Shown here one piece after another: positions 1-8,584 of a stretch of DNA of 64,000 bases. The DNA is from Sphingomonas lutea (GTDB lineage Bacteria > Pseudomonadota > Alphaproteobacteria > Sphingomonadales > Sphingomonadaceae): assembly GCF_014396785.1 (NCBI RefSeq), contig NZ_CP060718.1, forward strand, positions 1,322,501 through 1,386,500, given 5' to 3'. The notes beneath the pieces are model-generated. The model did no database searches, was not told where the DNA came from, and worked only from the letters and a program-made list of their open reading frames with translations. The position numbers were made by a program, and so were the translations under genes. Each line of letters starts with the position of its first letter. Positions within the stretch are counted from its first letter, which is position 1.

Positions 1-459
1 AGCACTGACTTTGCCGGCCGTCAGTTCAGCGAGAATCATGCCAACCCGCCGTTCGGCATCGTCAATCGCGCGCCTGCTCCCTCTCGCACGAAATCCAAGT
101 CCCAGAACCATCCTAGCACCAGGCCAGCGATTTCGGTCCTCGTTCTCCGAGATTGCCTCGAACAGCTGCTGGGACCGCTGGAGAAAATCATGCGTGACGC
201 CGTTGTCCCGCAGCGAGAGGTCCCTGTAAGCGACCGCGCCGTCGTTGATAACCAGGGTCCTGTAGTAGCGACCGCTGTGATCGGCGACGATTCGGTGGAA
301 AGTCCGCAGCCGTGTGACCGCCTCCTTCGCTCGCGGGTCGATGGGGTTCAGCTCGGCGTCGGCGATCATCGAGCCGTAGCCGAGCAGGTCAACCCATGCT
401 GTAGCGGAGATACAAAAGGGTAGCGCGCCTGATCGCGAGCGCGAGATCGTGGTGGGCAT
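1..459 (-). CDS. Hypothetical protein, 3' end off the window
   Basis: An open frame of 153 codons runs from an ATG at 459 to the window edge without a stop, so the C-terminus is missing. After about 20 residues the protein reads AWVDLLGYGSMIADAELNP, then a basic/acidic region with RLRTFHRIVADHSGRYY and NDGAVAYRDLS. An early 'DLLGYG/DxLGF' stretch followed by a 'linger-over-display' type domain is common in uncharacterised accessory proteins, but I cannot name the family. It starts 16 bases after the stop of the upstream gene on the same strand, so the two probably form one operon. Confidence 0.65.
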   Translation of the reverse strand, partial: MPTTISRSRSGALPFCISATAWVDLLGYGSMIADAELNPIDPRAKEAVTRLRTFHRIVADHSGRYYRTLVINDGAVAYRDLSLRDNGVTHDFLQRSQQLFEAISENEDRNRWPGARMVLGLGFRARGSRRAIDDAERRVGMILAELTAGKVSA

Positions 460-475
460 GGTGCCTGAGCCGTCT

Positions 476-1117
476 TCAGCTCAGACGCAGCGTTTGGGAG
501 TTAGTGCCCTCCACCTCCACCCGGAATATGCATCCGCCCGCATCAATCTCAAATACATGGCGCACGAAGCCTAGGTATAATGTCGCGGGTGCCGGTGCTA
601 TCTCGCTGCTACGCTGCATTTCCTGGAGACTGGCGAGATCGCCAGCGTGAAGGAGGCGGTAGCTGAGCAGCTGCAGGCTTGGTGGCTCAGCGCCAAGTTC
701 GGCCGTGATGGCCTCCACTGCGATCAACGCCGCACCTTGCCGGTTCAGGTAAGCAGGAATCCGAAGAAGTGGACGCAGCCGCGCTGCAAGCTTCGGCCAA
801 GCTTCGAGACCGTCTTGGATAGGCTTGCCTGCGAAAAATAACGCTGCGATCCAAATCCAGTTCGGCACCTCCGTGGTCGCTTTAAGGAGCGTCAGGAACG
901 CCGGCAAATCGGCACCGGGGCCAATGTTGCCGTCCTCAAAGCGCTGCCCGAACTCGTTCTCAAGCGCCAGACGGAACTGCTCTCGGTCGCGCTCCCACTC
1001 ATCATCCTCCGACCTTCCGTAGGTCTTGTCGACTACGGCGACTAGGATGTTCCCCTCATCCTCAAAAGCTTGGAGATTTTCGTCGTGAGGGAAGGGCTGA
1101 TTGATCCATCCTGTCAT
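476..1117 (-). CDS. Hypothetical protein (213 aa)
   Basis: Not recognised. The ATG at 1117 opens a 213-residue acidic, soluble-looking protein with no signal peptide and no clear membrane segment; a hydrophobic patch near residue 72 (PNWIWIAALFFAG) is too short and too Trp-rich to be a confident helix through the membrane. The C-terminal part (FVRHVFEIDAGGCIFRVEVEG) looks like beta strands. It is followed after 16 bases by the partial gene at the window edge, suggesting co-transcription. It lies in the accessory block next to tRNA-Lys. Confidence 0.6.
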   Translation of the reverse strand: MTGWINQPFPHDENLQAFEDEGNILVAVVDKTYGRSEDDEWERDREQFRLALENEFGQRFEDGNIGPGADLPAFLTLLKATTEVPNWIWIAALFFAGKPIQDGLEAWPKLAARLRPLLRIPAYLNRQGAALIAVEAITAELGAEPPSLQLLSYRLLHAGDLASLQEMQRSSEIAPAPATLYLGFVRHVFEIDAGGCIFRVEVEGTNSQTLRLS

Positions 1118-1225
1118 GATTGAGGTCCCTAGCGCAGCTTACGGGGGAGGTCATCTTCACAGCGTCGGTGCAAGCTCTTCCGAGTAGGCAATTGCTTCCG
1201 CTATTGGGAGTGCAGGAGAATTGGG

Positions 1226-1918
1226 ATGGCGCGAAAAGGCAAAGCGGACTCGGTTGAGCCAGTGTCAGCCGCAACATCGCACCCCAGGCAAAAGACGCCT
1301 TGGTGGAAGAGAGCCTGGGCGGCCCCCGCGGCGTTGGCCGCTGTGCTCACAAGCGTGGTTCTCATCCTACAGAACACACGAGCGCTGCCAGGTGAATTCC
1401 GGAAGACTTCTGAGCAGTTCTTTCAGTGGTATGGCGATTACGATGCGTGGAAAGGACACTGGACCAACGCCACTGAGGGGCTGGTGGACGTTGCCGAATT
1501 AAACCTCTCAAAGGACCGTTTTCGTCTCAACATAGATGCAAGCGCCGGTGGTGCCATTGCGGGATCTCTTGCTACGAAGGGAATCTGTGAGAGGCTGCCT
1601 TTCTTCGAGGAGCTATTGGTCGAAGGTACCATCTCAAGCGCAAGCAGAGCAGAGATCACTGCCTTCGACTTCGTGGGTGGAAAGAGAACAGCGTTTGCGA
1701 GTGCCACCCTACGCCGTGATGGTGATGTGATGACAGTCAGCGCCACCAACGATCCTGCAGGCGTCTTCCCCAAGGAAGCTCGAATTGCTCTTGATCCCGA
1801 CGACGACTTAAACCTTGCCGGAGAGCAAGAGCCGCTCTGCGCAGATAAGAAAGAAAGGTTCATCAGGGGTGCGGTGGATGATGTGCCCCAGCTCAGGAAA
1901 AGTAAATCCGTACCCTGA
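1226..1918 (+). CDS. Hypothetical membrane-anchored protein (230 aa)
   Basis: Not recognised. A purine-rich AGGAG lies 8 bases before the ATG. The N-terminus is basic (about 30 residues, ending PWWKRA), followed by one hydrophobic helix at about residues 31-49, then an extracytoplasmic-looking domain of about 180 residues containing the pattern FRLNIDASAGGAIAGSLATK and two cysteines (about C118 and C209) that could pair. Topology suggests an inner-membrane protein with a periplasmic C-terminal domain. It is divergent from the 213-aa gene at 476-1117, with about 108 bases between the starts. Confidence 0.6.
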   Translation: MARKGKADSVEPVSAATSHPRQKTPWWKRAWAAPAALAAVLTSVVLILQNTRALPGEFRKTSEQFFQWYGDYDAWKGHWTNATEGLVDVAELNLSKDRFRLNIDASAGGAIAGSLATKGICERLPFFEELLVEGTISSASRAEITAFDFVGGKRTAFASATLRRDGDVMTVSATNDPAGVFPKEARIALDPDDDLNLAGEQEPLCADKKERFIRGAVDDVPQLRKSKSVP

Positions 1919-2100
1919 TACAAGCTGGGCGCAGGATGGGCCCAGACATCGGCGATTCGAATGTGACAGCCCTTCCTGCCGCAGCCGTCATCGGATGGCC
2001 ATCGCCTGGTGCAATATGTCAGTAGCTTCCCGTACCGACGTTGATTCGAGTGTCACAAAGAACAACTACTCGCGACTTGGCGCGAGAGGACTGACGCTCA

Positions 2101-3234
2101 ATGGCTGAGCCCGATGACGACCTTCTGCACGTCCGGCAGAACATTTTCGCAGCGGTGCTACTTAGGCTGGCGTATCTCCGCGGGTTCGAACCTCCGCCGG
2201 AGAGAAATTTCATCGGTCAGCGCTACATCGAAGATCCTGCGAAGGTGCGGTGTGTCATAGGCGCACTGTTCATGTTCCCAGGAGAAGTTGAACCTTTTGA
2301 GTATTATGAGAGAGGAGTCCATGTAACAGTTCAGCAGCATGGCCCCATTTTACATGTAGAAATCGACCGGTTTATTTCCCAACTTCTTTGGGACGATCTC
2401 AGACTTCTCGGCGAAGGACAGGAATTCGTTGTAGGCTATTTGTCTACACTAATGCCGAGCTTAAATCGGCGTCTGTTAGACAACAGGTATATGAGAGGCC
2501 ACCTTCTCTCACGGACCTTTGCTGTCTTCGAAGCGGTTGACCTTCACATAACTGTTGGATCGAGACGACTATGGATCCACTGGCCTCCAAGCCTTCCGCC
2601 ATTCCCTCCGACGGTCGCTCTTTCCGGATTAAATTTACCCACATATGTAAGAGATTACATCGATAGTATCGCGGCGTACTTCAGGCATGAATATGACGAT
2701 TGCGTCCGCCGAGTGATAACTGCAACAGAAAACTTTATGGACGCCCACCGATGGCGCGCAAAGCCTCTGAGCCTTCTACACAACGTTCTTGGCATGTTTA
2801 GTGTCAGACAGAAGATGGGTAGTTCATTTCGAGGAAGACTTAGGAATAACTTGGATCTAACAAAAATTAGTGGAACGGTACTGCACGAAAACCTATTACT
2901 AGTCTATTCTCTAAGGAATAGAATAGTTCACAATGGATACAGAATGGCTAGTAATAGCGCAGAGTTTTGCGATAAGGCTGTTATTTCACTTTATTATCTA
3001 CTTAGTAGGCACTGTACTGACGATAGGGTCGTGGAATACTTGTTCACTTTACACCAGCAATACTTCTTACATAAGAACTTACTTGGTCAGCTACTTGACC
3101 TCGATAGGATTGCCAGATGGAACCTTGCTGAGCGCCCGGATGGCGAGATACTCGACGTAGACGATCCTGAGGCCATGGATGAGTTCTTTTTCGGATCAAT
3201 CCGTTTCACGGACGCGGACCGCCGGTCGGTCTAA
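2101..3234 (+). CDS. Hypothetical protein with HEPN-like R-x4-H motif
   Basis: The ORF encodes 377 residues and has a GAGGA stretch upstream of the ATG. The C-terminal half is helical and carries LRNRIVHNGY at residues 271-280, an R-N-x3-H arrangement (R272, H277) typical of the HEPN superfamily, in which many members are RNases in toxin-antitoxin, abortive-infection and CRISPR systems. The HEPN assignment comes from this motif alone and is an inference. The middle and 3' part of the gene is visibly richer in A+T than the rest of the window and uses codons such as TTA, ATA and AGA, which are rare in its neighbours; this indicates recent transfer. No antitoxin partner is obvious; the next gene, convergent, is a DUF3800 protein. 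Confidence 0.6.
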   Translation: MAEPDDDLLHVRQNIFAAVLLRLAYLRGFEPPPERNFIGQRYIEDPAKVRCVIGALFMFPGEVEPFEYYERGVHVTVQQHGPILHVEIDRFISQLLWDDLRLLGEGQEFVVGYLSTLMPSLNRRLLDNRYMRGHLLSRTFAVFEAVDLHITVGSRRLWIHWPPSLPPFPPTVALSGLNLPTYVRDYIDSIAAYFRHEYDDCVRRVITATENFMDAHRWRAKPLSLLHNVLGMFSVRQKMGSSFRGRLRNNLDLTKISGTVLHENLLLVYSLRNRIVHNGYRMASNSAEFCDKAVISLYYLLSRHCTDDRVVEYLFTLHQQYFLHKNLLGQLLDLDRIARWNLAERPDGEILDVDDPEAMDEFFFGSIRFTDADRRSV

Positions 3235-3296
3235 GGCATCATAATGAAGGGCCCATCGACCGACGAGTACGGTACAGGGGCATCGTCAGTGAGCGG

Positions 3297-4013
3297 CTAG
3301 TGAATGCACCCGAACCATATTGATCCCAGCCATTTCTCTGCCGCTCGGACGACTGACGGCGGGCAATTTTGCGAGATGCTGAGGCCAAAGGGGTGCATAA
3401 CAGGTTCCCAGTTTTCAGCTTCATGATCCGGGTGCACGGGCTTCCCACCGAGCGCATATCGAAGGGATGCCCATAATTTAAAATCAAGCTCAACCTCGGG
3501 CGCGTACAGCGGGTCGGCCGTTGCCACGTATTTTGTCACGTGTCCCAGTTCGCTCAGAATGATCCCAGAAATTGTATGGGCTGCACAGTCCGCGAGCTGG
3601 ATGCCGAGCACCTCACGCGAATCGCAATTCATGTGGACCGTCCATCCACTGACGGGAGCGCTTCCACTCCGAAGGCCCGCGTCCAGGAAAATTGCACCGA
3701 CGGGGACATCGAGGGATTGAACGAGCGATATAGCTTCACCACCAATTTTCGCGCGCTCATCTATTCCGCAGATCGCAACGGCAATTTTGCAAGTTTGGAG
3801 TAGTTGCCAGCGCAATTCGTCCCGAAGTGCCTGGCGCAGTGGATCTCCGGCCATGGGTGCACTACTCTTGAACTCGTCAATGCCCGGACGAAGCCCGGCC
3901 CGTTGCAGCGCGGATTCGATGGCCTCATCGGGAGGAACGTCCGACCAGACAGCCGCGGCGAGGATGAAGCCTGCGCGTGTGTGTATACTTTCATCGATAT
4001 AGACGAATGACAT
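3297..4013 (-). CDS. DUF3800 family protein (RNase H-like fold)
   Basis: The 238-residue protein opens with FVYIDES (D7, E8), has a strand ending FLDAGL (D111) and then SREVLGIQLADCAAH (D142). These are the hallmarks of DUF3800, predicted to adopt an RNase H-like fold with acidic residues at the active site. Members are frequent in prophages and defence islands; no substrate is established. It converges on the HEPN-like gene (62 bases between the ends) and diverges from the DUF2971 gene at 4090. Family assignment is fairly confident, function is not. Confidence 0.75.
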   Translation of the reverse strand: MSFVYIDESIHTRAGFILAAAVWSDVPPDEAIESALQRAGLRPGIDEFKSSAPMAGDPLRQALRDELRWQLLQTCKIAVAICGIDERAKIGGEAISLVQSLDVPVGAIFLDAGLRSGSAPVSGWTVHMNCDSREVLGIQLADCAAHTISGIILSELGHVTKYVATADPLYAPEVELDFKLWASLRYALGGKPVHPDHEAENWEPVMHPFGLSISQNCPPSVVRAAEKWLGSIWFGCIH

Positions 4014-4089
4014 GGTGGCGTTCGCACCTAGCGCGGACCGCTGAAGAAGCCCAGTTGTCGCCTTTCGGGCCAGACAATAGACGCGAGTG

Positions 4090-5007
4090 ATGATAGGGCA
4101 GAAAGCTGACGACCAAGAGACCGTGTTCCGCCGGCTCTACAGGCCGGGAGGCGGTACACCGCTTTACCATTACTGCAACACACCGAGCTTTCTTGCCATC
4201 CTGGAGAGCGGCAAGCTTCGCTTTAGCGACGCAAACATGATGAACGACGGCAGCGAAGGGCGCTACGGCTATGCCTTATTTGAGCGCGCTGCCAACGCGC
4301 TCCTAGACATGGCTACCGACAACCCGGTGCTCGAGGGCCTCGATGCCGCTTTTTTCGACAAGATAGACGCGTACTTGTCGCCGAAGCAGCTTCACAGCCA
4401 TCCTATCATCGCATGTTTCTCCAAGAGCCCGGACGTTCTCAGTCAATGGCGAGCCTATGCAAGCGATGGGCAAGGCTGGAGCATCGGTTTTCCCGCGTCT
4501 GCGCTAGCAGCGATGCCCGTCTCGCTGCTCGAGGTTCTCTACGACCCAGATCAGCAGCTGCGGGAAGTGCGCAATCACCTCGGTGCGATGTATGCCATCT
4601 GGAAGGAGTCTGAAGATCGCGAGCTGACCTCCATCAGGACCGAAGTTGCGCTTTTTGCAAGCTGGCTACACGCATACAAGGATCCTACGTTCGCCGAAGA
4701 GCAAGAGGTTCGCGCATTGCATGAACTTCGAGTCGACATTGGTGAGAACGGCCTCCTACTTGTTGACGAAGGCGGGGTAGCGGAAGGAGCTGAGGTCGGT
4801 GGTGAGACTGTCCAGTTTCGGACCGATGGTACGAGTATCACGGCATTTGTGGACATCCCCTTCCGTGCCGGAAAGGGCGGCGAGATAATCGAGCTGTGGT
4901 TCGGACCGCGCAACAACAATGGTCTTGGGAACGCACTTTATCCCATGACCCAGTATGGACATCCCGGCGTTCGCCTGCGGCACTCTGCGTCATTCTATAG
5001 GGGGTGA
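4090..5007 (+). CDS. DUF2971 domain-containing protein (first copy)
   Basis: The 305-residue protein has the DUF2971 signature: PLYHYCNTPSFLAILES near residue 25, then LRFSDANMMNDGSE, then CFSKSPDVLSQWRAYASDG around residue 110 and GWSIGF. The opening Y-H-Y and the later S..QW..Y..G pattern resemble parts of the ADP-ribosyltransferase-type fold, but that relation is inference. The ATG at 4090 is chosen; a GTG directly before it is also possible. A second DUF2971 gene lies on the opposite strand 35 bases after the stop, so the paralogues converge. Confidence 0.75.
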   Translation: MIGQKADDQETVFRRLYRPGGGTPLYHYCNTPSFLAILESGKLRFSDANMMNDGSEGRYGYALFERAANALLDMATDNPVLEGLDAAFFDKIDAYLSPKQLHSHPIIACFSKSPDVLSQWRAYASDGQGWSIGFPASALAAMPVSLLEVLYDPDQQLREVRNHLGAMYAIWKESEDRELTSIRTEVALFASWLHAYKDPTFAEEQEVRALHELRVDIGENGLLLVDEGGVAEGAEVGGETVQFRTDGTSITAFVDIPFRAGKGGEIIELWFGPRNNNGLGNALYPMTQYGHPGVRLRHSASFYRG

Positions 5008-5042
5008 TCAAGTTCCGTCGGCGACGTCTGTGCCAGCTTCGA

Positions 5043-5903
5043 TCAAAGAGGGCTGGCGGCCTTCACGGCCAGGCCTGCCGAAGCCCGCAAGAGCTCGTCA
5101 AATTCAGTACTGCCGCGGGCAATCGCGGGCCCGAGAGTGATGCTTCGGATAGCGCAACCGCGGCGCGTCTGAAGCGGGAGGCTGATGAACGGCGTAGGCC
5201 CGTGCGCTCCCTCACGGGCCCCTACCTCGAGGGACGGCAAGGCGTTTCCGAGCTGATCCTGCCCGCCGACATCAAGCCAGGCGCCGCCGGACTCAGCCCG
5301 GACCAGCAGCCGAGAGATTCGGATCTCCTTTTCGCGGGCGAAATCCGGATGTTTGAAGGCGAATAGGTCGCAGACGAGGAATTGAGCGAGCTCCCGCAGA
5401 GCGGCGATGTCGTTGGGCTCTTCCTCGAACTGGGTCTGCAGCATTTCAAATCCCGCCGATGAAAACGCGTCGAAGTTCGCACGGTCGTAGACAACCCTCC
5501 GCATCGCGACCCCTGCTTCTGCAGCAAGGAGAGATGCGTCGAGCCCGATGGCGCAGCCTGTGCCCTCAGCACCGTATTGCCTCCATTGATGCGCGTCGTT
5601 GTCATCCGGTGACAGGCAGCCGATGAACATCTTGGTATTTTGCTCAAGACCGATCAGCGCCGCGCTCAGGACGAGACGTGGGGTCATGTCGAGGTAGCGC
5701 TGGCGGGATCGATGATTCTCGAGAAAGCAGGAGCGCGCATAAGCATATTCTCGAGGATCGTTCATGCGGGTGAAGTCGGATAGCCAGAGCGCCTGGCTAC
5801 CCAGAATGCCTTTGGCTGCCGCGATGCTTGTATAATGATAAAGGATCGTGCCCTCTCCAGGCTCGAAGAAGTGCGCAAGCGCGGGCGGTGGGGCCCTCAC
5901 CAC
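5043..5903 (-). CDS. DUF2971 domain-containing protein (second copy)
   Basis: The 286-residue protein shares the DUF2971 layout with its neighbour at 4090: EPGEGTILYHYTSIAAAKG, then LWLSDFTRMNDPREYAYA, then GCLSPDDNDAHQWRQYGAEG and GCAIGLD. The two are diverged paralogues rather than recent duplicates. The start is a GTG at 5903, since no ATG precedes the conserved region. It is divergent from the 148-aa gene at 5968 with 64 bases between them. Biochemical function is not known for the family; linkage with RES and HEPN genes here suggests a role in nucleotide- or RNA-directed defence. Confidence 0.75.
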   Translation of the reverse strand: MVRAPPPALAHFFEPGEGTILYHYTSIAAAKGILGSQALWLSDFTRMNDPREYAYARSCFLENHRSRQRYLDMTPRLVLSAALIGLEQNTKMFIGCLSPDDNDAHQWRQYGAEGTGCAIGLDASLLAAEAGVAMRRVVYDRANFDAFSSAGFEMLQTQFEEEPNDIAALRELAQFLVCDLFAFKHPDFAREKEIRISRLLVRAESGGAWLDVGGQDQLGNALPSLEVGAREGAHGPTPFISLPLQTRRGCAIRSITLGPAIARGSTEFDELLRASAGLAVKAASPL

Positions 5904-5967
5904 GGTGAGATGCGCCGCCGGATCGGAGTCATGGCGTCGCTCTCGAAGTCAGAATAGGCCTCGGTAC

Positions 5968-6414
5968 ATGCATCCTGTTTCCCTAATCTGCCGCAACGCG
6001 CCCGGCGAGGCTGTCGATCTAGTCGAGCGCTTTTTTCATGAGGCTCGCCTCGATACACGACTGTTCGTCTTCGGATCGGATCCAGACAAGAACGCTGAGG
6101 TGGCGGCGGAGCTAGCGGAAGTGAGCCTGGGCGCTGCGGGCGGCTTAGAGGTGTGGCTCGTTCCAAGCGCCTTCACCCGAATAGAGCAGGAGGGGCAAGA
6201 AACGGCAATGGAAGCGCGTGCTTTCCTCGGCCTCCCGAATTCCGAGAAAGCATCACAAAGGTTGCTTATCTTGCTCGATGACGACGAGTTGTCTCCCGCG
6301 ACCGTTCACGTGTTGAGATTGTCGGACCTGGTGGGAGGTCGCATTTCACCGGATGAATTTCGCGCTCGTTTGCAGGAAATTCAGAACACGACTGGTCCGA
6401 AGCCTAAGTCGTAG
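5968..6414 (+). CDS. Hypothetical protein (148 aa)
   Basis: Not recognised. I chose the ATG at 5968 because the 40 codons open upstream of it overlap the opposite-strand DUF2971 start and read as non-protein-like. The product alternates strands and helices (TRLFVFGSDPDKNAEVAAEL, EVWLVPSAFTRIEQEG, RLLILLDDDELSPATVHVL), consistent with a small alpha/beta domain, and ends basic. Its last 34 bases overlap the 3' end of the convergent RES-domain gene. Confidence 0.55.
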   Translation: MHPVSLICRNAPGEAVDLVERFFHEARLDTRLFVFGSDPDKNAEVAAELAEVSLGAAGGLEVWLVPSAFTRIEQEGQETAMEARAFLGLPNSEKASQRLLILLDDDELSPATVHVLRLSDLVGGRISPDEFRARLQEIQNTTGPKPKS

Positions 6415-7445
6415 GAGACTTTGCGGATTACGAGCCGGTTAATCCCGGCAACGTCCACCACTTTGTTAGCCACAGGCCTGCCGAACAAAGCGATATTCTC
6501 AATGATCTTCGAGCGCTCATAGCTGTGAGCGCTGTCCAACCTGCGCAGCGACAGACCATAAACAGTTTCGAACGGCACTGACCCGGTTCTCAGCACGCTG
6601 AAGTAAGAGGGATAGATCATACCATCGAAGCCTCTGTCCCTGGTGGCCCGTGCGATGGCGCGCGTCGTTTCGTAGGATTTGCTGCTGCCGAGAAACAGCA
6701 TAAGCACGGCCAGGTCGAGGCTCTCGAACTCCGTGCCCTCCTCCTTCAGGATCGCGGAAAGATCGAGGAGGCGGAGGGGGCGCCGGGCACTGAGACTGGC
6801 GGCGTAAAGCTCGTCTCCGGCGATGAAACGGCTCTCGTGGACGCAGATGTCAAGGTCCTGCGATCCATAGAATATCGGATATCCGGGTGCGTCTAGGCGC
6901 CCTTTCCCGTAGCTTCCTTCGGGCGGTGAATCATACTGCAATGGGTCGCCGGGCCGCTCGGGCTGTTTTCGGACTCTGAAAAAGATGTCTCCTGGCGCGA
7001 GTTCGACCTTCGGGAATAGGTCGAGCATGCGGGCAATTTCGAAGCCGCGGTGCTTGGGATCAAGTAGTCGTTGCAGCGGCTCGATATGTCCCAGCATCCA
7101 GAGCCTGGGGCCATAGTGGAAGAGGCCGATCCCGGCCGCCTTCTGGATGAGCTCTACGTCCTTAGTGAGATTGGGGTCTGGATCGAGCGACCCCGTTTGC
7201 ATCTCGTTGAACTGAATCGCCGGCGCTCCGCCAAAATCTACGGCGAGCATGCTTCCGCGTACGAAGAACATGTCGGCAAGCCACAGCAGCTCCGGACGCC
7301 GAAGGAGGTGCTTCGAGGTGGTGCCGCAGTTCGGGCAGCGGAGTTCAGGCGACGTGACAGCGGCCGCAGTGCGCTTCAATCCCTCGTCGAGAAAACAATG
7401 AGCGCACAGCAGCGGCTCGCCTAACTCTTCCTTTTCCTCGCTCAT
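6381..7445 (-). CDS. RES-domain protein with N-terminal zinc ribbon
   Basis: The 354-residue protein begins with paired cysteines C14-x2-C17 and C37-x2-C40, a zinc-ribbon pattern. From about residue 150 it shows a RES domain: FFRVRK (R157), GRLDAPG (R183), FYGSQD (Y193), CVHES (E204) and later RGFDGMIYPS. Known RES toxins degrade NAD+ using an ADP-ribosyltransferase-like fold, and the R, Y and E positions match. It is longer than the short Xre-RES toxins and no Xre-type antitoxin is present. It is the last gene of an operon: its ATG overlaps the stop of a 46-codon ORF (TGATG). The domain call is confident; NAD+ cleavage is inferred. Confidence 0.75.
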   Translation of the reverse strand: MSEEKEELGEPLLCAHCFLDEGLKRTAAAVTSPELRCPNCGTTSKHLLRRPELLWLADMFFVRGSMLAVDFGGAPAIQFNEMQTGSLDPDPNLTKDVELIQKAAGIGLFHYGPRLWMLGHIEPLQRLLDPKHRGFEIARMLDLFPKVELAPGDIFFRVRKQPERPGDPLQYDSPPEGSYGKGRLDAPGYPIFYGSQDLDICVHESRFIAGDELYAASLSARRPLRLLDLSAILKEEGTEFESLDLAVLMLFLGSSKSYETTRAIARATRDRGFDGMIYPSYFSVLRTGSVPFETVYGLSLRRLDSAHSYERSKIIENIALFGRPVANKVVDVAGINRLVIRKVSYDLGFGPVVF

Positions 7446-7585
7446 CAGACCAGTCGGCCTTTCGCATCGAGGACTTGGTCCTCGGCCATACGTAGCAGCC
7501 GGTCCACTTGCGCCTCAGGAGTGTTTACGGGGCCGGAAGACAAATCAGAATTATTGCCATCGTCGTCCGAGCAATAGCGCTTCAA
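7445..7585 (-). CDS. Small ORF (46 aa) between the RES gene and its operon partner
   Basis: A 46-codon frame opens with TTG at 7585, overlapping the TGA of the upstream gene (7584-7582) as TTGA, and ends with TGA at 7447-7445, sharing its last base with the ATG of the RES gene. The product is acidic at the start (KRYCSDDDGNNSD) and ends in an amphipathic stretch (EAQVDRLLRMAEDQVLDAKG). The double overlap argues for a translated gene coupling its neighbours. It could be an antitoxin or adaptor; there is no recognisable domain. The non-ATG start lowers confidence. Confidence 0.5.
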   Translation of the reverse strand: MKRYCSDDDGNNSDLSSGPVNTPEAQVDRLLRMAEDQVLDAKGRLV

Positions 7586-8292
7586 GACTGGGCCTCTGAA
7601 TGGTCTTCGAAGGGCCACGGATCCATTTCAGTGGGCCCGGACAAAGAGGATATTGCCAGCCAAAAGTCAGAGACGGACTGTGCATAGGCTTCCAACCGGT
7701 CCACCGAAATCGCAAGCTCGCTGGCAAGATCGTCAAGGCCGCCTTCGGACTCAGGGTTCGGCGGATTAAGCCAGATGTCCGGTCGCAGAGCGTTTAGCCG
7801 GAGCGCCGACGGTCCATCGCCGTGACGCACTACGTTTCCAACCAGGACAAGCTCATGAAGGAGCTGCCCGCCGGCGAGGTCTGCCATACGTCGGCCGCGC
7901 AACTCGAAAAGTAAGTCATCCAGTTTGGGGGTGTTGGCGATTTGAATCCGGCGCAGTAGCGCAACTGGTCGATCCAATTCCTTCGCGCAAAGTCGTAGCC
8001 ATCGACGAAAGTGCGACTCCCACACTGACTGAACAGCGAGCGCCAGGTGCTTGTTCAGCTGGGCAAGGGCAAGTTCCACCCGCAGGTTGTGAGATCCAAC
8101 TGCACTTGGGTCGATCAGCTTGGCGGAGAGCGCAGCGGCAGCGTGATGCACTACGTATTCCTGGAAATACGAGAACTCGAGGACGAAAGAGGCGATTTCT
8201 CGATCAGCTTCAAGGACGGTCCAAGAAGGCGCAGTTTGGGCCTCTTTTTCGGAATTCTTTGGTTCGCAGCGAGAAGAGTCTCCGGGGCTCAC
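7582..8292 (-). CDS. Hypothetical protein, first gene of the RES operon (236 aa)
   Basis: A GTG at 8292 starts a largely helical 236-residue protein (for example FVLEFSYFQEYVVHHAAAA and AVQSVWESHFRRWLRL). Around residue 150 it reads LVLVGNVVRHGDGPSALRL. This resembles the core of HEPN-like helical domains, but the arginine expected five residues before the histidine is a glycine, so a catalytic HEPN is not supported. It may be an antitoxin-like or structural relative. It is followed without gap by the 46-codon ORF and the RES gene. Confidence 0.6.
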   Translation of the reverse strand: MSPGDSSRCEPKNSEKEAQTAPSWTVLEADREIASFVLEFSYFQEYVVHHAAAALSAKLIDPSAVGSHNLRVELALAQLNKHLALAVQSVWESHFRRWLRLCAKELDRPVALLRRIQIANTPKLDDLLFELRGRRMADLAGGQLLHELVLVGNVVRHGDGPSALRLNALRPDIWLNPPNPESEGGLDDLASELAISVDRLEAYAQSVSDFWLAISSLSGPTEMDPWPFEDHSEAQS

Positions 8293-8508
8293 GTCGATCT
8301 TTGTAGGAGGGGGCCGCCTACGAAGTCGATAGAGACGAAATGCGCGCCAGCAATCCTTCGTGTAAATCGTTCCACATCGGCATTTAGGGCCTCTGCGCTT
8401 GTAACAGGCGCTTTCGCCGAGTCTGCTGTTTTGCTTGCTATCTGATTGCTAGGCTCGTGCGTGCCCGCGCAATCCGTTGCAAAACCATTGCTAAGTTCTT
8501 GAAAATAA
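8293..8508. other. Non-coding junction between the accessory block and tRNA-Lys
   Basis: I see no convincing ORF on either strand. The stretch should contain the promoter of the leftward operon that starts at 8292 and, immediately next to the tRNA 3' end, any integration junction. No copy of the tRNA 3' end is visible elsewhere in positions 1-8508, so the second attachment site, if there is one, lies outside the window. Confidence 0.4.

Positions 8509-8584
<76 letters not shown>

What the first reader, a model, noticed from the sequence alone, without database searches (positions are those of the whole stretch)
1..8508. Accessory island at tRNA-Lys rich in RES, DUF2971, HEPN-like and DUF3800 genes
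Eleven mostly unrecognised genes on both strands sit directly against the 3' side of tRNA-Lys(CTT), while everything beyond is conserved core genome. At least four encode domains typical of toxin-antitoxin or defence loci: RES, two DUF2971, one HEPN-like motif and one DUF3800. No transposase or integrase is visible in the window. The combination could be a new defence or conflict system, or several adjoining ones.
Basis: partly seen in the sequence, partly recalled or inferred. Interest (0 to 1): 0.8.

Follow-up and report, generated by a model that had tools for sequence, protein, structure and literature searches.

The report
Mobile defence-type island at tRNA-Lys
A 20.8-kb piece of apparently foreign DNA sits in a lysine tRNA gene and carries a known type of DNA-restriction system plus a row of mostly unrelated toxin-like or defence-like genes; this is a common way for bacteria to collect such genes, and two of them may belong to an overlooked family of NAD-using enzymes.

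Summary
The island is real, but the window shows only its right 8.5 kb. The whole element is 20.8 kb (genome 1310222-1331058), between tRNA-Lys(CTT) and a copy of that tRNA's 3' end (inner 52 of 52 bases identical). A tyrosine integrase starts 117 bp inside the copy; then come a primase-polymerase, DUF3987 and McrBC. G+C is 57.5% against 66.6% in the rest of the window. Related integrases in four other genera of the same unnamed family sit near tRNA-Lys genes; none of the region's other proteins matched there, and one (G388) uses the same tRNA-Lys/rodA site. None of the window's cargo was found at this site in 32 genus relatives (five with under 4 kb in hand). Neighbouring cargo genes mostly change strand, and relatives of those that could be followed have other neighbours, so they look like independent modules, not one new system; this test is limited by short loci. 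New: a DUF2971 model resembles the ADP-ribosyltransferases DarT and KptA (moderate support), so with RES the island would carry three such enzymes. Defence and mobility are inferred, not tested.

The parts
8507..8558 (-). tRNA-side attachment sequence: 3' part of tRNA-Lys(CTT) plus two bases, identical (52 of 52) to a copy at genome 1310243-1310294, 12.2 kb left of the window
7582..8292 (-). orfF236: helical in the model, conserved N..RHG motif; relatives on plasmids and three viral contigs; HEPN-like only by motif
6381..7445 (-). RES-domain protein (354 aa) with N-terminal CxxC..CxxC extension; no Xre/MbcA-like antitoxin recognised beside it
5968..6414 (+). orfE (148 aa from ATG 5968; 188 aa from GTG 5848), no family; overlaps the 3' end of RES by 34 bp
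5043..5903 (-). DUF2971 protein b, model resembles DarT/KptA
4087..5007 (+). DUF2971 protein a, 27-28% identical to b, convergent with it
3297..4013 (-). DUF3800 protein (marginal Pfam match)
2101..3234 (+). orfD377, RNRIVH (HEPN-type) motif; no relative in 72,556 plasmids or 245 other genomes of the order
1226..1918 (+). orfC230, no family; relatives not searched
476..1117 (-). orfB213; relative on a Paracoccus plasmid (41%)
1..459 (-). orfA277, N-terminal 153 aa (rest at genome 1322126-1322500); relatives 46-48% on rhizobial and Blastomonas plasmids

Best explanation
An integrative element of 20.8 kb inserted in the 3' end of tRNA-Lys(CTT) next to rodA. Shown: tRNA-end direct repeats, a tyrosine integrase at the far repeat, a Prim-Pol gene and a DUF3987 gene next to it, low G+C, absence of its cargo from the same site in relatives, and related integrases in other genera near tRNA-Lys with other cargo. 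Inferred: the integrase recombines the tRNA 3' ends, the primase and helicase-like proteins copy the excised circle, and a helper passes the element on (no capsid, packaging or conjugation gene recognised). The cargo is McrBC (by family, restriction of modified DNA) and a row of mostly independent conflict genes, added or swapped piecemeal. RES and the two DUF2971 proteins are predicted NAD-consuming ADP-ribosyltransferase-fold effectors, restrained until a signal such as infection and then stopping growth of the cell; HEPN-like orfD would cut RNA.
For: Repeat and integrase. Prim-Pol 2.9e-27, DUF3987 2.5e-87, MrcB_N 6e-43, McrBC 1e-33, DUF2726 1.8e-20; MBL-like protein, LmuA 3.3e-11 in PADLOC. 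G+C 57.5% against 66.4% (his side) and 66.6% (window side). G388 (integrase 64-65%): 45-of-45 repeat and tRNA-Lys(CTT) 6.5 kb apart, then rodA; G600: 58 of 60, 8.9 kb; G301: 54 of 56 at tRNA-Lys(TTT), 11.7 kb; G579: tRNA-Lys(TTT) 6.35 kb from the integrase start. Viral contig L205: an intact tRNA-Lys(CTT), 52 of 52 to our sequence, about 160 bp before a 44% integrase. In 9 of 37 genus genomes (G000 included) a tRNA-Lys 3'-end copy of 47 bp or more lies on the island side. DUF2971: 14 of the 16 best PDB matches are DarT or KptA/Tpt1; H23 on the first strand is invariant in 30 of 30 rows, and ExExR is invariant in the 7 rows of A2, which were not chosen by that pattern. RES and KptA are placed in the ADP-ribosyltransferase superfamily by PMC9503650 (passages).
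Against: No empty site with this genome's left flank was found: the his cluster beyond the repeat lies elsewhere in the 13 relatives examined, and a third repeat lies beyond it. Of 29 related integrase loci, 24 show no tRNA-Lys match in their 1.5-kb flanks (query of the CTT type). G541 has a repeat but no tRNA-Lys within 20 kb, G627 neither in 6.3 kb. No DUF2971 PDB match reaches E 0.001; the best is 6.6e-3, probability 0.84, with low TM-scores. The 28 viral rows of A4 were found with a pattern that holds K184, F188, E191 and E193, so their invariance there says nothing. Defence and mobility are untested.
Confidence: 0.8

Rival explanations
1. The window genes form one new multi-gene defence system that happens to sit in an island.
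For: Ten adjacent genes, several of conflict-type families; orfB and orfA are 16 bp apart on one strand, and RES and orfF share a strand; a Novosphingobium plasmid has an annotated DUF3800 gene 2.3 kb from an orfF relative, though our DUF3800 protein does not match it.
Against: 6 of 9 neighbouring pairs change strand. Upstream neighbours of four orfA relatives are not orfB-like (R. etli and S. fredii share theirs; R. sullae and Blastomonas have others). RES relatives lie beside tRNA-Ala, among insertion sequences, or near a related integrase and a tRNA-Ser. No two cargo families were matched in any of 227 other loci, most of them short.
Confidence: 0.08
2. A phage satellite of the P4 or PICI type with a defence-gene hotspot, moved in the capsids of a helper phage.
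For: Integrase of the Arm-DNA-bind_3 kind at a tRNA, primase and helicase-like genes next to it, cargo at the far end; six integrase relatives in IMG/VR contigs.
Against: No capsid, packaging or helper-hijacking gene was recognised in the Pfam scans of 18 proteins or the PHROGs scan of 10 (one chance-like tail-protein match of the MBL protein over 31 residues).
Confidence: 0.3
3. A decayed or fixed island that no longer moves and is merely a store of genes.
For: The outer part of the repeat is degenerate (70 of 78 columns identical in all); a third partial copy beyond the his cluster hints at old rearrangement.
Against: The integrase frame is intact (451 aa), the inner 52 bp of the repeat are perfect, and the cargo is absent from the site in the genus members examined.
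Confidence: 0.25

Closest known systems
tRNA-integrated, integrase-bearing islands among E. coli defence hotspots (PMC10121019, 2023; passages read)
   Same: Integration at tRNA loci, islands with an integrase and no other known mobility gene, variable defence cargo at a fixed site.
   Different: Other lineage and another attachment site (tRNA-Lys next to rodA); most cargo here belongs to no catalogued system in PADLOC.
Mobile elements with archaeo-eukaryotic primases in bacteria (PMC5862659; passages read)
   Same: Primase together with DUF3987, integrases, tRNA targets; DUF3987 is predicted there to be a helicase.
   Different: Here Prim-Pol and DUF3987 are separate genes; assignment to a primase family of that paper was not tested.
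RES-Xre toxin-antitoxin pairs, for example NatR-NatT (PMC11535050; passages read)
   Same: RES domain; that paper reports NAD phosphorylase activity and a structure superposed on diphtheria toxin.
   Different: No Xre-like antitoxin recognised beside it; N-terminal CxxC..CxxC extension of about 150 aa.
DarT of DarTG; KptA/Tpt1
   Same: Best PDB fold matches of the DUF2971 model.
   Different: No DarT family match by sequence, and no DarG-like macrodomain among the island proteins scanned.

Membership tests
tRNA-integrated mobile island | Direct repeat of the tRNA 3' end at both ends | tested here: met
   inner 52 of 52 identical, 70 of 78 in all
tRNA-integrated mobile island | Integrase gene next to one repeat | tested here: met
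   117 bp from the repeat; Arm-DNA-bind_3 8.2e-15, Phage_integrase 3.2e-11
tRNA-integrated mobile island | Patchy presence among relatives | tested here: met
   0 of 32 genus relatives match a window cargo gene at the site; for five of them under 4 kb of island side was in hand, and 4 of the 36 were not fetched
tRNA-integrated mobile island | Empty site with the same two flanks | tested here: inconclusive
   G001, G018, G035 have an 858-864-aa gene 22-48 bp from the tRNA, which lies 8.2-8.9 kb away in G006 and G019, but G000 has other left-flank genes
tRNA-integrated mobile island | Excision and transfer | not testable with these tools
   needs an experiment
P4-like satellite | Integrase of this kind with primase/helicase genes | tested here: met
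   that this set marks P4-like elements is recalled
P4-like satellite | Helper-hijacking or packaging genes | tested here: not met
   none recognised in Pfam (18 proteins) or PHROGs (10 proteins)
Type IV restriction McrBC | McrB with MrcB_N and AAA_5 followed by McrC | tested here: met
Type IV restriction McrBC | Cleavage of modified DNA | not testable with these tools
   needs an assay
RES-Xre toxin-antitoxin | RES domain | tested here: met
   3e-14
RES-Xre toxin-antitoxin | Adjacent Xre/MbcA-like antitoxin | tested here: not met
   neighbours orfE and orfF match no Pfam family
DarTG | DarT sequence family | tested here: not met
   Pfam gives DUF2971 and, for protein a, Tox-ART-HYD1 at 0.19
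DarTG | DarG-like macrodomain partner | tested here: not met
   no such domain among 18 island proteins
ADP-ribosyltransferase superfamily (DUF2971) | Fold | tested here: inconclusive
   favourable but moderate: 14 of the 16 best PDB matches, best probability 0.85, none with E below 0.001
ADP-ribosyltransferase superfamily (DUF2971) | NAD-dependent activity | not testable with these tools
   needs an assay
HEPN (orfD, orfF) | R-x4-6-H motif in a helical domain | tested here: inconclusive
   orfD has RNRIVH but no model; orfF is helical with NxxRH, and its PDB search gave nothing significant (HEPN 7ae6 at rank 17, probability 0.09)

The most novel reading that the evidence does not exclude
DUF2971 is a little-noticed branch of ADP-ribosyltransferase effectors that travels on prophages, plasmids and islands, so this element delivers three independent NAD-targeting effectors (two DUF2971 and one antitoxin-less RES with a zinc-ribbon-like extension) next to McrBC: a second line of abortive defence behind restriction.
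Probability: 0.4. Interest if true: 0.6.

Novelty: new member of a known kind. Interest (0 to 1): 0.4.

Why it matters
It fixes the borders and vehicle of a gene store that a single window could not show, and points to an integrase group that uses tRNA-Lys genes in at least five genera of one family with different cargo each time, so such sites can be mined for conflict genes. The fold lead on DUF2971, matched here on 112 plasmid records and 34 viral contigs (both searches limited), gives a widespread uncharacterised family a testable activity.

Tried and rejected
One new system: disfavoured for the reasons given under rivals. On checking I raised its odds from 0.06 to 0.08, because of the annotated DUF3800 gene near an orfF relative and the shortness of the loci, and changed the DUF2971 fold test from met to inconclusive. 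orfA as a class III nucleotide cyclase: its motif order (WxDLLGYG, NDGAVAYRDL, GAR) suggested it to me, but hhalign against PF00211 domains from relatives gave probability 0.5% over 20 columns, and PDB sequence searches with it found nothing. HEPN fold for orfF: no significant structure match. Conserved orfB-orfA pair: not borne out by four orfA relatives. The his cluster as cargo of an older tRNA-Lys element: open; see Noticed in passing. PDB sequence searches with DUF2971, orfF, orfD and RES gave no usable match (DUF2971 only chance-level rows). A viral-contig scan with DUF2971 b alone found nothing; the alignment query did. A literature search for sphingomonad islands at tRNA-Lys gave no paper that I opened (listing only).
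Full report
WHAT IS THERE. The tRNA-Lys(CTT) gene lies at window 8509-8584, minus strand. A search of the own genome with the tRNA region found two further partial copies to the left, at 1310222-1310294 and 1302182-1302228, and a weak match to tRNA-Trp. The first aligns over 78 columns with 70 identical, 52 of them one perfect inner stretch covering the tRNA 3' end. The integrase frame starts 117 bp inside it (1310412-1311767, plus strand; Arm-DNA-bind_3 and Phage_integrase). The element between the repeats is 20.8 kb, of which the window shows the right 8.5 kb.

CONTENT FROM LEFT TO RIGHT (genome). Integrase; orf149 (no family); Prim-Pol 1312538-1313455; DUF3987 1313418-1314971; McrB 1315922-1318456; McrC 1318351-1319517; a metallo-beta-lactamase-like protein 1319881-1321053 (Pfam below its cut-off), whose best PADLOC match is LmuA (3.3e-11); DUF2726 1321387-1322046 (minus); orfA277; then the window genes orfB213, orfC230, orfD377, DUF3800, DUF2971 a, DUF2971 b, orfE, RES, orfF236. 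The frames were picked by length and overlap only. Gaps in the window run from -34 to 216 bp, and 6 of 9 neighbouring pairs from orfA to orfF change strand. The G+C of the island is 57.5%; the his side is 66.4% and the window beyond the tRNA 66.6%.

THE SITE IN RELATIVES. All 61 genomes searched have some match to the tRNA/rodA query. In 9 of the 37 genus genomes (G000, G002, G013, G015, G017, G019, G020, G025, G034) a copy of the tRNA 3' end of 47 bp or more lies on the island side of the same contig, 1.6 to 73 kb from the tRNA; the list was cut at its weak end, so this is a lower bound. I took the island side of 32 of the 36 genus relatives (33 loci of at most 20 kb; five of the 32 with under 4 kb of island side). 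tblastn with 28 proteins of the region found only an integrase in G025 (45%) and two copper-gene frames in G006. The first genes beside the tRNA differ between most genomes. G001, G018 and G035 share an 858-864-aa gene 22-48 bp from the tRNA; in G006 and G019 the same gene lies 8.2 and 8.9 kb away, as expected if DNA enters at the tRNA. An empty site with G000's own left flank was not found. G020 has an Arm-DNA-bind_3 match beside its tRNA-end copy.

THE INTEGRASE GROUP. Of 298 genomes of the family, 47 (own included) have a match with E of 1e-60 or less. Among 29 loci examined besides the own one, three have a tRNA-Lys(CTT) repeat of 45 bp or more 134-165 bp before the integrase, two a 24-bp match, and 24 none, by a query of the CTT type. 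Fetching 6 to 20 kb for six of them showed: G388 (integrase 64-65%) with a 45-of-45 repeat and tRNA-Lys(CTT) 6.5 kb apart, followed by genes that I read by eye as rodA, mrdA, mreD, mreC and mreB, that is, the same site in another genus; G600 (48-52%) 58 of 60 at tRNA-Lys(CTT), 8.9 kb; G301 (63%) 54 of 56 at tRNA-Lys(TTT), 11.7 kb; G579 (63-64%) tRNA-Lys(TTT) 6.35 kb from the integrase start, the far copy outside the piece; G541 a repeat without a tRNA-Lys within 20 kb; G627 neither in 6.3 kb. None of the other 27 proteins of the region matched there. Viral contig L205 has an intact tRNA-Lys(CTT), sharing our 52 bp, about 160 bp before a 44% integrase; the other five viral integrase loci show no such match. 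So the closer members of the integrase group target tRNA-Lys genes and the cargo is exchanged; more distant ones may use other sites.

IS THE CARGO ONE SYSTEM? orfF: 1 of 240 class genomes (the own) and 10 of 72,556 plasmids. orfD: 1 of 246 order genomes (the own) and no plasmid. orfB: 1 of 250 class genomes (the own) and 2 plasmids. orfA: 4 of 256 order genomes with the own, two of the hits short, and 7 plasmids. RES: 6 of 219 family genomes with the own, only G610 full length (59%), 1 plasmid, and one Blastomonas contig where it lies 0.36 kb from tRNA-Ala; in G610 it is on one 20-kb piece with a related integrase and, 3.6 kb away, a tRNA-Ser. orfE: no plasmid. DUF2971: 10 of 119 family genomes with the own, 112 plasmids, 34 viral contigs. 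orfC and our DUF3800 protein were not searched. A tblastn over 227 loci not from this genome (median 4.2 kb, so a weak test) found none with two cargo families and one with RES and the integrase (an earlier run, agrees for the cargo). Against this, a Novosphingobium plasmid carries an annotated DUF3800 protein 2.3 kb from the orfF relative. Other neighbours of the relatives include abortive-infection, AbiEii-type, ABC-three-component, reverse-transcriptase and transposase genes, so the genes often keep defence-type company.

DUF2971. The model of protein b (30 sequences, mean pLDDT 82.8, pTM 0.83) has DarT (7omv, E 6.6e-3, probability 0.84) as best PDB match, and 14 of the 16 best matches are DarT or KptA/Tpt1; none reaches E 0.001, and TM-scores by query length are 0.14-0.32. 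Among viral models the best are unnamed phage proteins and an ASCH-domain protein, two with E below 0.001. H23, Y24, N48, D49, E52, W107, R108, Y110, Y139 and R195 are invariant in 30 of 30 rows; K184, F188, E191 and E193 are too, but 28 of the rows were found by a pattern that contains them; in the seven rows of A2, not so chosen, they are also invariant. H on the first strand and ExE before a late strand is the layout of H-Y-E-type ADP-ribosyltransferases (recalled, not from a call). One paper in the library names DUF2971 and none names PDC-S31 (listings only); subscription papers are mostly not in that library, so I cannot say that the idea is unpublished.

RES. PMC11535050 (passages) reports that the RES toxin NatT degrades NAD with phosphate and superposes on diphtheria toxin, and says that no RES toxin-antitoxin system had been implicated in immunity. 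PMC9503650 (passages) lists RES and KptA within the ADP-ribosyltransferase superfamily. Here no antitoxin of the usual kind is recognised, so a different control must be assumed.

VERDICT. Defence is an inference from families and company, not a result.

Noticed in passing
L005:6182-14167 (genome 1302182-1310167); L131 (G022): The his cluster (hisG, D, C, H, A, F, IE and a phosphatase-like gene, named from sequence) lies between the far island repeat and a third tRNA-Lys 3'-end copy (45 of 47). In 13 relatives it lies elsewhere; in one of them, G022, it ends 7 bp from the 3' end of tRNA-Lys(TTT), with no second copy or integrase in that 20-kb locus. Whether tRNA-Lys elements once moved it is open.
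   Followed up: partly
L005:2634-5392 and L050: copA/copB-like copper genes (named by eye) lie just beyond the third repeat; G006 has relatives of them between its tRNA-Lys and the gene that abuts the tRNA elsewhere.
   Followed up: no
L006:10126-10959, window 1-459: orfA family has an ordered set of invariant motifs (WxDLLGYG, NDGAVAYRDLS, PQLQANFAF in five rows) and no Pfam family; 46-48% relatives on rhizobial and Blastomonas plasmids and one at 38% on a viral contig.
   Followed up: partly
L060 (G025): Remodelled tRNA-Lys site: several direct and one inverted copy of the tRNA end, an intact inverted tRNA-Lys, and a 45% integrase beside the outermost copy.
   Followed up: partly
L057, L058 (G023): tRNA-Lys and rodA are about 25 kb apart, so DNA may also have entered on the rodA side.
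   Followed up: no
L139 (G610): A 59% RES relative shares a 20-kb piece with a related integrase and a tRNA-Ser, as if a RES gene rides on a similar element at another tRNA.
   Followed up: partly
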